From the NCBI GenBank assembly GCA_017538365.1, contig JAFYIZ010000024.1, forward strand, positions 1-32,859: 32,859 bases of DNA, in the 5' to 3' direction. The first letter of the stretch is position 1; each line of letters starts with the position of its first letter. This DNA comes from a bacterium (GTDB lineage: Bacteria; UBP6; UBA1177). Both the position numbers and the translations under genes were made by a program. The notes beneath the pieces are model-generated. The model saw only the letters and a list, made by a program, of their open reading frames with translations, ran no database searches and was not told the origin of the DNA. This document shows positions 18,352 to 23,955 of the stretch, one piece after another.

Positions 18352-20712
18352 TCAGAAAACGGTGACGGAACATCCGGAAGAGGAAGATTCTTTTTTCTGC
18401 TCTTTTTTCGGAGTGCATGAGCCGTAGTCGCAGTAGCCTTTTTTGCCGTCCGAAGTGGTGCAGTCGTTCCAGTTTTGAGAAATATCCGGAACTTCAAGGA
18501 AGCCGTCCAACTCGTCACATTCCGTTTTGTAGCACTCTTTTGCAGCCGGCATATCAACAGCTTCGCCTTCGCATATACCTTGCTTGCAGACTTCGTTTTT
18601 TACACAGAGTTTGCCCGTGTTGCATGACATTCCTTCGTTTTCGGCGACCGCTTCACATTCTCCGGTATCGGGATTGCAGGAGCCCTTGGAACATTCCGAA
18701 TCAAAGTGAGAGCAGTCTTTTATATTCACATCAGTACATTTCCCACTGAAACACTGTCTTCCTCCGACACAGGCATTTTCGGATGTGCCGCAGAACGAAC
18801 CGTCGGGCATCTGAGCTGTGCTGCACGATTTTGTTGCTTCGTCGCAGATGTTTTCTTCACATTCTTTTTCGCTGTTGAGGCACGGTATGGAATTTTCCGA
18901 TTTCATACAAAAACCTTCAGTACATACTTCTTTTCCGTTGCAGAAAATAGAGTCGTCGCAGTCGCTGTCGTTTTCGCACTGCTTCATATTCAGATTCAGA
19001 GAAGGATCTCCGATGTAGTTCGTTTCGTGTTTTATCGTCAGCAGGACATCATAATTGGACCATCTTTCTTTGGTTTCGGAGAGAACCTTTGCCGGAATAT
19101 CGTTTTTTACGACAGCATCGGTGAAAACGGTTCCGTATGCGAAAGTATCCTGCGAACTGAGGTCGTAGTTCTCGAAAATCAGGCCATAAGAAACCTGAGA
19201 AGCACCAGCAACACCGACAGCGGTGTTTTTAAGAGTCTCATAGGCGAGGTTTCTGTCTGAGTGTATCGAACCGTTCAGACAGCTTCCCTGAAAAACAAAT
19301 GGAGAAACAGCTGTAACTTTTTTCATAAGGGAGTTGTCGACGAATGTGTCGCTGTAGAGTTCATATCTGTAAGTTTCCGGAATCCAGTTATCGTTTTGGT
19401 CGTAGCCCCAAATAGTACGCACTGAATAATCGGGCATTCCGTGGGCCTGCCAGAAGACTGCTCCGTATCCTTTATTCATATTTTCGAGCATTGAACTGTA
19501 TGTCAAAGCGTCTTCGGTGAAAAACTCAGAGGGATCGAGACCGCTTTTTTCTACAAGCAGTTTCGATGTAAACGGCTCTTTTATGGAATCGGTTTTCAGA
19601 TATTCCGCGATATAAGCTCCGTCCATTTTCGGTATTCCGTACTGGCCGTCCTGATTTTCGTAATATGAAATCGTCGCAGGAAAGAGTACCCTGAACCTGT
19701 AGTCGGCGGTTGATGGTTTCTCCTTTATGAAATCGACTGTTCTTGCCAGAATTTTGTCAGTATCCTCGACATTTTTGTGATAAATCGGAATCCTGCCGAC
19801 AATGAGTTCGAATGCGTAATTTATTCTATCGCTTGATTCACCGTAAACACCGTTTTCGTTGCCATCCATATCTTCGGTAAGTTCGGCATAAAAAATATCG
19901 GTCGGAACATCGTCGTAATCCGGTTCGTCGGTTCTGCAAGGTGTCGTTACGACCATCGGAACTTCATTCCCGTCAGGCTCGGTTCCGGCGATTATGAGCA
20001 GAAAATCATAATTTGTGTAAACTGTTTTCAAGTATTCTCTGATTTTTTCGGCACGCTTGATTCCTACGAGGTTGCCTCCTCCGTAATTTGTTTCCGTGGC
20101 AATATGAACCATAAAACCGGATTCTTTTTTAGCTTTGATGAAATTCCAGATTTCTTTGGATTTCAACATGAAATATTCTGTTGTAAGGATGAGAATTGAA
20201 TTTTTGCCTTGAGTATTTCTCATTGGAAGAAGAGTCCTTCCTTTTGTCGTGACTCTGATCCTGTCTATTTTTACGACCTCTTTTTCATCAACAGGTATAA
20301 TCGGGTAAAAATTGAATCCGAAAAGCTGCTGCGTGCGTTTGAAAGTCGAAAAATGATTGAATGTAAACTTTGAAAGCGATGGCAGCATTCTTTCTGTCTG
20401 AACAACTTTTTTGACTTTCCGCATATCGTTCAGCCGATAGAGTGCTTCACCTTTTTTCAGCGGGGCTTCAAGTGTTATTTTATGCTGCTTCAGTATCTCG
20501 ACTTTTACGATTTCGCTACCGAAAACCATTTTTTTTACAGGAAGAAGCGTATTTTCGCCCGTTCCGTCAAGATCAAAACCTTCAATATTCGGAATGGTAA
20601 AACCGTTCTTTACGCTGAAAACGGCATCCGGTATGTCGATATCGACAGTGTCTGCAAAAATATTTATAAAAAACAGTACTGCAATCGAAAGTAGTAAAGA
20701 TTTTTTTATCAT
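18352..20712 (-). CDS. Secreted C25 (gingipain-like) cysteine peptidase with Cys-rich C-terminal repeats
   Basis: 786 residues. The N-terminus MIKKSLLLSIAVLFFINIFA is a signal peptide, so the protein is exported. The central part resembles peptidase family C25: a candidate catalytic His at 424 (VFWQAHG) and Cys at 478 (FQGSCLNG), and the closing GDPSLNL that ends C25 domains. From about 579 to 766 follow Cys-rich repeats of the pattern C-x5-C-x6-C-x5-C, starting CENDSDCDDSIFCNG, a style seen in Myxococcota-type exported proteins. The last residues are SSSSGCSVTVF. The start is ATG 20712 after GGAG; the open frame runs nine codons further. Substrate and cell location beyond the inner membrane are not shown. 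Confidence 0.75.
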   Translation of the reverse strand: MIKKSLLLSIAVLFFINIFADTVDIDIPDAVFSVKNGFTIPNIEGFDLDGTGENTLLPVKKMVFGSEIVKVEILKQHKITLEAPLKKGEALYRLNDMRKVKKVVQTERMLPSLSKFTFNHFSTFKRTQQLFGFNFYPIIPVDEKEVVKIDRIRVTTKGRTLLPMRNTQGKNSILILTTEYFMLKSKEIWNFIKAKKESGFMVHIATETNYGGGNLVGIKRAEKIREYLKTVYTNYDFLLIIAGTEPDGNEVPMVVTTPCRTDEPDYDDVPTDIFYAELTEDMDGNENGVYGESSDRINYAFELIVGRIPIYHKNVEDTDKILARTVDFIKEKPSTADYRFRVLFPATISYYENQDGQYGIPKMDGAYIAEYLKTDSIKEPFTSKLLVEKSGLDPSEFFTEDALTYSSMLENMNKGYGAVFWQAHGMPDYSVRTIWGYDQNDNWIPETYRYELYSDTFVDNSLMKKVTAVSPFVFQGSCLNGSIHSDRNLAYETLKNTAVGVAGASQVSYGLIFENYDLSSQDTFAYGTVFTDAVVKNDIPAKVLSETKERWSNYDVLLTIKHETNYIGDPSLNLNMKQCENDSDCDDSIFCNGKEVCTEGFCMKSENSIPCLNSEKECEENICDEATKSCSTAQMPDGSFCGTSENACVGGRQCFSGKCTDVNIKDCSHFDSECSKGSCNPDTGECEAVAENEGMSCNTGKLCVKNEVCKQGICEGEAVDMPAAKECYKTECDELDGFLEVPDISQNWNDCTTSDGKKGYCDYGSCTPKKEQKKESSSSGCSVTVF

Positions 20713-20742
20713 TTGTAACTCCATAAAAACTATAAGCAAAAT

Positions 20743-21385: not shown

Positions 21386-21507
21386 TTCCCCCTCCATAAA
21401 ACAACCGCCTTTATCGTAAAAATACGCGGAGGAAAGGCAAATTTTATAAAAAGTCGGAATCAGATTTTTTTCTGCTAAACTATCCCGTTTTTTGAAAGGA
21501 GGATCTC
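21386..21507. other. Divergent intergenic region before nfo
   Basis: 122 bases between a minus-strand membrane gene and plus-strand nfo. Apart from the nfo ribosome-binding site (AAAGGAGG at about 21496-21503) and a weak TAAACT at 21476-21481 with no matching -35, I see no clear promoter, hairpin or repeat. Confidence 0.5.
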
Positions 21508-22350
21508 ATGGTCAAATTCATCGGCGCACACGTTTCGGCTTCAGGCGGAGTGGAAAACGCTCCCAAAAACGCGGCAGACATCAAGGCAACGGCTTTCGCT
21601 CTCTTTACCAAAAACCAGAAACAGTGGTTTGCACCGGCACTTTCAGCCGTTTCGGTAGAGGCTTTCAAAAAAGTCTGTGCAGATTGCGGTTTTACTGCGG
21701 AATCCATTCTGCCGCATGACAGCTATCTCATAAATCTTGGTCATCCTACCGATGAAGGACTTGAAAAATCGAGGACTTCCTTCACTGAAGAGATGAAGCG
21801 CTGCGAAATATTAGGGCTCGACAGACTCAACTTCCATCCCGGAAGCCATCTGCGGGAAATCACGGTGAGTGAATGCCTGACACGTATCGCAGAATCGATA
21901 AATATCGCGCTCGACAAAACTCACGGTGTTACCGCAGTCATCGAAAACACTGCCGGACAGGGCTCGAATGTCGGCTTTGAATTTGAGCAGCTTGCAGAAA
22001 TAATCGAGCAGGTCGAAGACAAATCGCGAGTCGGAATTTGCATTGACACATGCCACGCATTTGCCGCAGGATATGATCTCACGACCGATGCGGCGTGCGA
22101 GAAAACTTTCGCAAAACTCGATAAAACCGTGGGGCTCAAATATCTGCGCGGAATGCACTTGAACGATGCAAAAAAAACGCTTGCAAGCAAAGTCGACAGG
22201 CACGAAACACTCGGAAACGGCGCGATAGGGCTTGACTGCTTCAAATGGCTCGTCAGACAGCCTTTTACCGATAATATTCCGCTTATTCTGGAAACTCCCG
22301 AACCCGAAAGATGGCCCGAAGAGATCTCTCTTCTCAAAAGTTTTATTTAA
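21508..22350 (+). CDS. nfo: Endonuclease IV (AP endonuclease)
   Basis: 280 residues, the usual length. Endonuclease IV cuts DNA 5' of abasic sites in base-excision repair using three zinc ions. All nine metal ligands line up with the E. coli enzyme: His70, His110, Glu146, Asp180, His183, His217, Asp230, His232 and Glu262. The motifs [15 protein letters not shown] and DRHETLGNG are exact in style. AAAGGAGG precedes ATG 21508. The next gene starts nine bases after its stop with its own strong site, so the two are very likely one transcript. Confidence 0.97.
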
Positions 22351-22359
22351 GGAGGAAAA

Positions 22360-23955
22360 ATGAGGCTTCTCGTAACGATACTTTCCCGCCAGACAGTTGT
22401 TCAGGCTTCCCTAATACGCGAAGCGGCGCCGGATGTCATAATTTTCGTTTCGACAGTGATGGCGGCTGAAAACGACTGGCACAAGAACATCCCGATGCTC
22501 ATCAAGCGCGAAAACGGCGAGATAAAGTATCTCAATGTTTTTATTGAGAAAAATATGAATCTCGGCGCGATACTCGAAATGCTCCAAAGGCATGTCGGAA
22601 ATGTCGTCACGCAGTACGGGATAACCGAGATCTGCTGCGATGCTTCGTGCGGAAAAGGGATCCACAGGATACTTTTTGCCGAATATCTCAAACGTTTTTC
22701 TGAAAAGCATGAAATTGATTTTTCACTCGTCTATTTCGATCTCGATACGCGCCAGATCAACCGCATCGCCGTCAAAGACCAGGCTTTTCATGAATACCGC
22801 TCAAGCGTTTCGATAGACTGGCACTTGAAGGAGCGTCTTACGCTTTACGGCGCGGAACTTACCGATTTTCTGACTATTTACGATGCCGGCAAAAACTATT
22901 TCGTGGAGACTGCCGAGCAGTTTGAAGAACTTTACGAAAATTTGTGCAACTCTATGAACTTACGGGCATTTTTCTCTTCCTACGACAACATGAAGTCGAT
23001 AATCGACCTCAAAAACGAACTCCACGAATTCATGGTGAAAAATAACCGCGAAGAGCAGATCGACAAGTTTTTGCAGCGCATTTTCGGTGTCATGCCGCAT
23101 CTACGCCCCGAAATAAACGACGCGAAAAACGAGATCAGACACAAACTCACTTCCTTTTTTGACGAAATGAGCTCAAGAAAAGAGCTGCGCTCGTTTTCCG
23201 ATTCGTTCGATTTCAGAACGACTCTCGCAAGTTGCCAGAAAAGATTCAACGCCGAAATGCCCGAAATTGTCATCGGAAAGATCCTTCCGCTTGCCGGAGA
23301 GATCGACAAAGCCGACCTCAAAAGCGATGTGCAGCACTTTCTGGACGTTCTTTTCTCAAAAATTTCGGAAAAAATCACTACCCTTGCCGACGTGCAGAAT
23401 GTCGAAGTCACCGCCGCAGTTTTCAACCGCTTCAAACAGAAATATGTCCGCGAGATAGAGCGCGAAAGCACTCTCAACACACGCTCTCAGATATCGATAA
23501 TCTTTGAAAAACTGATAAGTTACGCTGTTTACCGCGCTATCGAAAAATATCCGCTTCTCAAAGAATCGATAGCTTCGGTCTTTCAGAACGTAAAACTCAG
23601 CGGCAAGGCGAGTTCGCTCATCGAAATTGACACTCTCGTCGTCTTCAGAAACGGCTACCTCCACATTTTAGAGGCAAAAAGCTCGCACGTTTCGAACAAA
23701 GACCTCAATTCCAGAATCCTTGTGATGAAAAAATATTTGGGCGAAAGCGTCGGAATGGACATCGTTTTCCCGTTCACCGCGCACGACATCGAACTTTTCA
23801 AAGAGAAAAACGACCCCTTCATCCGCAAATTCTACAGCAAAGGCCTCAAGTCTGCGGCAGGCTGGGGCACATTCTTCGCAACTACAGACAAGGAGATCAC
23901 TCCGATCGACAAGATCGCAGGCAGACTGCTTGATCTGGCTACGAAATACAGCTGA
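22360..23955 (+). CDS. CARF-like PD-(D/E)XK nuclease, Card1/Can2 (DUF1887) type
   Basis: 531 residues. The N-terminus (LLVTILSRQTVVQASLIREAAP then DVIIFVST) has the pattern of the CARF half of DUF1887 proteins, which in Card1/Can2 bind cyclic oligoadenylate; the usual GGTK-type loop is replaced by CDASCGKGIH near 93-102. Residues 180-370 are a long helical, charged insert not found in the short Card1 proteins. The C-terminus is a PD-(D/E)XK nuclease: Glu383 in IIFEKLISYAVY, Asp424 in IEIDTLVVF, Glu438 and Lys440 in ILEAKS. No CRISPR array or cas gene is seen in the window. The role is inferred; anti-phage or stress signalling is possible. GGAGG lies before ATG 22360. Confidence 0.6.
   Translation: MRLLVTILSRQTVVQASLIREAAPDVIIFVSTVMAAENDWHKNIPMLIKRENGEIKYLNVFIEKNMNLGAILEMLQRHVGNVVTQYGITEICCDASCGKGIHRILFAEYLKRFSEKHEIDFSLVYFDLDTRQINRIAVKDQAFHEYRSSVSIDWHLKERLTLYGAELTDFLTIYDAGKNYFVETAEQFEELYENLCNSMNLRAFFSSYDNMKSIIDLKNELHEFMVKNNREEQIDKFLQRIFGVMPHLRPEINDAKNEIRHKLTSFFDEMSSRKELRSFSDSFDFRTTLASCQKRFNAEMPEIVIGKILPLAGEIDKADLKSDVQHFLDVLFSKISEKITTLADVQNVEVTAAVFNRFKQKYVREIERESTLNTRSQISIIFEKLISYAVYRAIEKYPLLKESIASVFQNVKLSGKASSLIEIDTLVVFRNGYLHILEAKSSHVSNKDLNSRILVMKKYLGESVGMDIVFPFTAHDIELFKEKNDPFIRKFYSKGLKSAAGWGTFFATTDKEITPIDKIAGRLLDLATKYS

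What the first reader, a model, noticed from the sequence alone, without database searches (positions are those of the whole stretch)
22360..23955. Orphan Card1/Can2-like CARF nuclease in one operon with endonuclease IV
The protein has a CARF-like N-terminus, a roughly 190-residue helical insert and a PD-(D/E)XK C-terminus with Glu383, Asp424, Glu438 and Lys440 in the Card1 order. Known Card1/Can2 nucleases act with type III CRISPR and cyclic oligoadenylate, yet no CRISPR or cas gene is in view, and it lies nine bases after nfo. The altered ligand loop (CDASCGKGIH) suggests another signal, perhaps another second messenger or DNA damage.
Basis: partly seen in the sequence, partly recalled or inferred. 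Interest (0 to 1): 0.68.

Follow-up and report, generated by a model that had tools for sequence, protein, structure and literature searches.

The report
Orphan Can2-like CARF nuclease beside nfo
A rumen bacterium and nearly all its relatives carry, next to a DNA-repair gene and without the CRISPR system such proteins normally serve, an intact signal-controlled nuclease of the Can2/Card1 kind, so it probably answers some other, still unknown, signal.

Summary
Window 22360-23955 (+) encodes a 531-aa protein with an N-terminal CARF domain, a helical middle and a C-terminal PD-(D/E)XK nuclease. Foldseek on AlphaFold models puts Can2, VC1899 and Card1 on top. A profile comparison with seven CARF4-type nucleases gives 96.4%, E 1e-9 over the CARF domain. 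The nuclease residues E383, E422, D424, E438 and K440 are invariant in 17 relatives. The genome has no RAMP, Cas10, Cas1 or type III repeat match. The gene is in 14 of 15 genus genomes, always directly after nfo; the fifteenth lacks both. Cas10 is in only 3 of 15. dN/dS is 0.04-0.12, like nfo. Two sister genera keep the gene without nfo beside it and without Cas10 or Cas1; a third genus lacks it. So this is a vertically inherited, selected, CRISPR-independent Can2-like nuclease. Its ligand loop is altered (GGTK to CGKG), but Thr42- and Tyr118-equivalents are invariant, so a nucleotide ligand stays plausible; its identity is unknown. Orphan CARF nucleases are known (VC1899). New are genus-wide retention, the nfo operon, the changed pocket and a removable 121-aa insert.

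The parts
22360..23955 (+). orphan CARF - helical insert - PD-(D/E)XK nuclease, 531 aa
   Evidence: ORF and translation; PADLOC CARF4 E 2e-8; Foldseek Can2/VC1899/Card1; dN/dS 0.04-0.12
22360..22872 (+). CARF domain, residues 1-171 (six strands, last two a hairpin)
   Evidence: secondary structure of both models, pLDDT mostly 60-90 up to residue 130; profile comparison with CARF4 nucleases, 96.4%, E 1.1e-9
22384..22395 (+). strand-1 ligand loop S9-R10-Q11-T12
   Evidence: aligned by eye with SEQT of Card1 (sequence); R10, Q11 and T12 invariant, residue 9 is Ser or Ala
22636..22668 (+). strand-4 ligand loop, residues 93-103 (CDASCGKGIHR), in the place of GGTK of Can2/Card1
   Evidence: residues 94-96 and 98-103 invariant in 17 relatives; Can2 and Card1 sequences
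23017..23379 (+). all-helical insert, residues 220-340
23413..23952 (+). PD-(D/E)XK nuclease domain, residues 352-531; E383 at 23506-23508, E422-x-D424 at 23623-23631, E438-x-K440 at 23671-23679
   Evidence: catalytic residues invariant; match FE, NELD, ECK of Can2/Card1/VC1899
21508..22350 (+). nfo, endonuclease IV, presumed co-transcribed upstream gene
   Evidence: NF002199 E 5e-143; directly upstream of the nuclease gene in all 14 genus genomes that have it
21446..21484 (+). conserved block upstream of nfo, presumed operon promoter region
   Evidence: alignment of upstream regions of the genus; inferred, no transcription data

Best explanation
The gene encodes a member of the CARF4 (Can2/Card1, DUF1887) branch of CARF nucleases that has lost its dependence on type III CRISPR in this bacterial family. 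It most likely works as Can2 does: a homodimer whose paired CARF domains bind a small nucleotide ligand, which rearranges the helical middle and opens the PD-(D/E)XK sites so that DNA and/or RNA is nicked or cut with Mn2+ or Mg2+. The ligand is probably not (only) Cas10-made cyclic tetra-adenylate, since most hosts have no Cas10; another nucleotide signal, from phage infection or stress, is more likely. In the genus of the window the gene is co-expressed with endonuclease IV, which could help repair the nicks it makes or place it in the DNA-damage response. Shown here: fold, catalytic residues, absence of CRISPR markers, selection, operon-like arrangement. Inferred: dimerisation, ligand gating, substrate, co-expression with and role of nfo.
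For: Profile-profile 96.4%, E 1.1e-9 with CARF4 nucleases. PADLOC CARF4 E 2e-8. Catalytic E, E-x-D and E-x-K invariant. Thr42 and Tyr118 of the Can2 pocket (named in PMC7969007) align with invariant T32 and Y125, and R10, K99 and R103 are invariant basic residues near the site. No Cas10, RAMP, Cas1 or type III repeat match in the host; among nine genus genomes at least 90% complete and at most 5% contaminated, all have the gene and one has Cas10. dN/dS 0.04-0.12, as low as nfo. A distant relative (24% identity) in the same phylum, split over two contigs, lies beside a Cas6-RT-Cas1 gene, which fits descent from a type III effector.
Against: The ligand and activity are untested. The key lysine of GGTK is shifted by one position, and Ser19 is Ala in g3 and g4, so the pocket may no longer bind a cyclic nucleotide. 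The known orphan VC1899 had only weak, cA4-independent RNase activity (PMC7969007). Models have mean pLDDT 60 and 57; global TM-scores are low (0.2-0.3), and the nuclease part is poorly modelled. Type III systems do occur in 3 of 15 genus genomes.
Confidence: 0.6

Rival explanations
1. It is still a cyclic-oligoadenylate effector: it waits as a standby arm that works whenever a type III system is acquired by the strain or population.
For: Three of 15 genus genomes carry Cas10 with Cas1 and arrays, and all three also carry this gene. Thr42- and Tyr118-equivalents are kept. A distant relative in the phylum lies beside Cas6-RT-Cas1.
Against: Type III loci of the genus bring their own CARF proteins (a Csx1-type, a protein with a C-terminal CARF, and in G003 a long CARF-PD-(D/E)XK). 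The gene is kept in g3 and g4, where no Cas10 or Cas1 was found, under strong selection in the genus. The GGTK lysine is shifted.
Confidence: 0.15
2. It is a DNA-repair nuclease: with endonuclease IV it processes damaged DNA, the CARF domain sensing a nucleotide released by damage or serving only for dimerisation.
For: Tight operon-like linkage with nfo in all 14 genus genomes that have the gene, with 4-nt overlap in several. PMC7969007 reports the mismatch nuclease EndoMS as the closest DNA-bound structural relative of the Can2 nuclease domain.
Against: Sister genera keep the gene away from nfo, on other contigs, with a chemotaxis receptor gene and thyX or a lipoprotein-like gene as neighbours. 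No SOS-type element was recognised by eye in the upstream alignment. No other CARF nuclease is known to me to act in repair.
Confidence: 0.17
3. It resembles VC1899: an exapted CARF nuclease whose pocket no longer takes a cyclic nucleotide and whose function lies elsewhere (protein partner, constitutive weak RNase).
For: The strand-4 loop of VC1899 (NASCGLRHR) looks like DASCGKGIHR here, both without GTK.
Against: In VC1899 the pocket turned acidic and hydrophobic (Asp9, Asp34, Val115; PMC7969007), whereas here T32 and Y125 stay and R10, K99, H102 and R103 are invariant. Similarity to VC1899 is weak (E 0.015).
Confidence: 0.08

Closest known systems
Can2 / Card1 (CARF4, DUF1887; type III CRISPR ancillary nuclease, cA4-activated)
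   Same: CARF then PD-(D/E)XK in one chain; FE, E-x-D and E-x-K catalytic positions; Thr42 and Tyr118 pocket equivalents; best fold match
   Different: No type III system in the host; GGTK replaced by CGKG or SGKG; 121-aa extra helical module; no significant Pfam, NCBIfam or PDB sequence match
VC1899 of Vibrio cholerae (1XMX), orphan DUF1887 protein
   Same: Orphan of type III CRISPR; same fold; ASCG loop without GTK
   Different: Its pocket turned acidic and hydrophobic and it lacks the insert; here the pocket keeps Thr and Tyr and gains basic residues; no close sequence kinship
Long CARF4 nucleases L080 (G044) and L082 (G003), 506-537 aa, PADLOC PDLC01886/PDLC01491; L082 lies between type III array segments
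   Same: Similar length, long helical middle, STERA..W motif after strand 2, IAFEK helix; best single-sequence profile matches (E 1e-4 and 2e-4)
   Different: They keep a GGQK loop; about 17% identity overall

Membership tests
CARF4 / Can2-Card1 nucleases | N-terminal CARF Rossmann-like domain | tested here: met
   Pfam CARF_Card1 below cut-off
CARF4 / Can2-Card1 nucleases | C-terminal PD-(D/E)XK domain with E-x-D and E-x-K | tested here: met
   E422, D424, E438 and K440 invariant, aligned with Can2 E276/D278 and ECK
CARF4 / Can2-Card1 nucleases | cA4-contact residues Ser19, Thr42, Lys99, Tyr118 (Can2 numbering) | tested here: inconclusive
   Thr and Tyr kept; Ser kept in the genus, Ala in g3/g4; Lys shifted by one position
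[quoted passage not shown]
   No RAMP, Cas10, Cas1 or type III repeat match in the host; so not filed as a type III effector
CARF4 / Can2-Card1 nucleases | Homodimer activated by cyclic tetra-adenylate | not testable with these tools
   needs biochemistry
VC1899-type orphans | CARF-PD-(D/E)XK protein without type III CRISPR | tested here: met
VC1899-type orphans | Pocket residues replaced by acidic or hydrophobic ones | tested here: not met
   T32 and Y125 kept, R10, K99 and R103 basic

The most novel reading that the evidence does not exclude
A CARF nuclease turned into a stable core-genome effector of a CRISPR-independent signalling route, with a nucleotide second messenger other than Cas10 products, coupled to base-excision repair through endonuclease IV.
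Probability: 0.2. Interest if true: 0.8.

Novelty: new variant of a known kind. Interest (0 to 1): 0.5.

Why it matters
Orphan CARF proteins are usually noted and left aside, and the one characterised orphan of this branch (VC1899) looks degenerate in its pocket. Here is an orphan that is present in 14 of 15 genus genomes and two sister genera, under selection as strong as a repair gene, with catalytic and most pocket residues kept and mostly without any type III system. That makes the question of what CARF nucleases sense outside CRISPR directly testable with one small protein.

Tried and rejected
Sequence search of the PDB with the protein, with the 17-member profile and with L082 gave nothing relevant. 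NCBIfam gave no family. The Pfam ComFB, NERD, Trm732 and terminase hits are below their cut-offs and were set aside. A phage or plasmid origin was rejected: no relative in phages, plasmids or viral contigs, and the window also holds ribosomal protein, secY and rpoA genes. A CBASS cyclase as signal source was tested with the SMODS family: 1 of 28 genomes of the phylum, not the host; other cyclase families were not tested. 'Gene lost in G007' was rejected as loss of this gene alone: nfo is missing there too, in an 84% complete genome. The two halves of the G025 relative do not overlap in sequence, so that they are one gene is an inference.

Full report
The sequence. The ORF at 22360-23955 (+) is intact, starts with ATG behind GGAGG and follows the stop of nfo by nine bases. 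The upstream gene is endonuclease IV. The window also holds ribosomal protein L2, secY, rpsD, rpoA, an rRNA adenine dimethylase gene and phosphoglycerate kinase, so the setting is ordinary chromosome, not a defence island or prophage.

What the protein is. Pfam gives CARF_Card1 below its cut-off (16.8 of 24.6 bits); PADLOC gives CARF4-CARF_PDDEXK at E 2e-8. An AlphaFold model on 17 relatives has mean pLDDT 60; in spite of that Foldseek ranks Can2 (E 4e-8), VC1899, another Can2 and Card1 first, in alignments of 540-590 columns. A second model with another family member as query has a CARF part of pLDDT about 70-88 and again finds Can2, with Csm6, Cdn1 and VC1899 in the list. A profile-profile comparison with seven CARF4-type nucleases gives 96.4% and E 1.1e-9 over residues 1-171. 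The nuclease residues E383, E422, D424, E438 and K440 are invariant in all 17 relatives and match FE, E-x-D and E-x-K of Can2, Card1 and VC1899.

Architecture. Helices run from about residue 185 to 400. The g3 relative lacks residues 220-340, so a 121-aa helical module sits in an otherwise Can2-sized chain. Long middles also occur in two CARF4 nucleases, L080 and L082 (506 and 537 aa), which are the closest single sequences outside the orthologous group. L082 lies between two type III array segments of G003, a genome of the same genus.

Ligand pocket. The cA4 contacts shared by Can1 and Can2 are Ser19, Thr42, Lys99 and Tyr118 (PMC7969007). Aligned by eye with the chains shown, and in agreement for strands 2, 4 and 5, they correspond to S9 (Ala in g3/g4), T32 (invariant), G100 with K99 one position earlier, and Y125 (invariant). 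Asp20 becomes an invariant Arg10. This mapping is an alignment inference.

CRISPR. The host (97.6% complete, 49 contigs) has no RAMP, Cas10 or Cas1 family match and no type III repeat match. In the genus Cas10 occurs in 3 of 15 genomes, all with Cas1 and arrays on the same contig; this gene occurs in 14 of 15. Among genus genomes at least 90% complete and at most 5% contaminated, 9 of 9 have this gene and 1 of 9 has Cas10. Genera g3 and g4 have the gene without Cas10 or Cas1; g2 (one genome, 92% complete) has neither the gene nor Cas10.

nfo. All 14 genus genomes that have the gene have nfo directly upstream, with a gap of 8-9 nt or an overlap of 1 or 4 nt. The fifteenth lacks both genes. In g3 and g4 nfo is on other contigs. 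The link is therefore a genus-level arrangement. Pairwise dN/dS against the window is 0.04-0.12 for this gene and 0.04-0.10 for nfo.

Reach of the family. No match at E 0.001 outside the phylum in a sample of 386 genomes or in plasmids, phages and viral contigs. Within the phylum a distant relative in G025 (24% identity) is split over two contigs; its N-terminal half lies beside a Cas6-RT-Cas1 gene, its C-terminal half beside a CARF sigma-54 regulator gene. That the two halves are one gene is inferred; if so, descent from a type III effector is likely.

Mechanism. Most likely a ligand-gated homodimeric nuclease as in Can2, with a changed ligand, serving defence or stress. The gating, dimer, ligand and substrate are inferred. 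The literature already states that each CARF family has members not linked to CRISPR (PMC4012209) and that VC1899 is an orphan (PMC7969007), so the kind is known; a library search for CARF domain together with endonuclease IV found no paper. The combination described here I rate as a new variant.

Noticed in passing
L065:2646-3974 (G012), similar ORFs in L066:5435-6790 and L067:7003-8361: A 443-452 aa protein in the three type III loci of the genus with a C-terminal CARF (about residues 258-376) and about 255 N-terminal residues without a Pfam match: a possible undescribed CARF effector.
   Followed up: partly
L082 (G003:C20, about 76460-78070): A 537-aa CARF-PD-(D/E)XK nuclease lies between two segments of a type III repeat array in a genome that also has the nfo-linked orphan.
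   Followed up: partly
L064:3128-4909 and L063:839-3000 (G025): A CARF sigma-54 activator of the RtcR/PspF kind follows the C-terminal half of the distant relative; a Cas6-RT-Cas1 fusion is divergent from the N-terminal half.
   Followed up: partly
G002:C2:30371-30453: Two copies of the type III repeat end 70 bases apart in a genome without a Cas10 match: perhaps a remnant array, but that genome is only 59% complete.
   Followed up: no
window 18352-20739 (-): A 795-aa peptidase of family C25, the gingipain family (Pfam E 3e-24).
   Followed up: no
VC1899 (PDB 1XMX) against window 22636-22668: The strand-4 loop of the orphan VC1899 (NASCGLRHR) resembles DASCGKGIHR here although overall similarity is very weak; common loop of orphans or chance is open.
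   Followed up: partly
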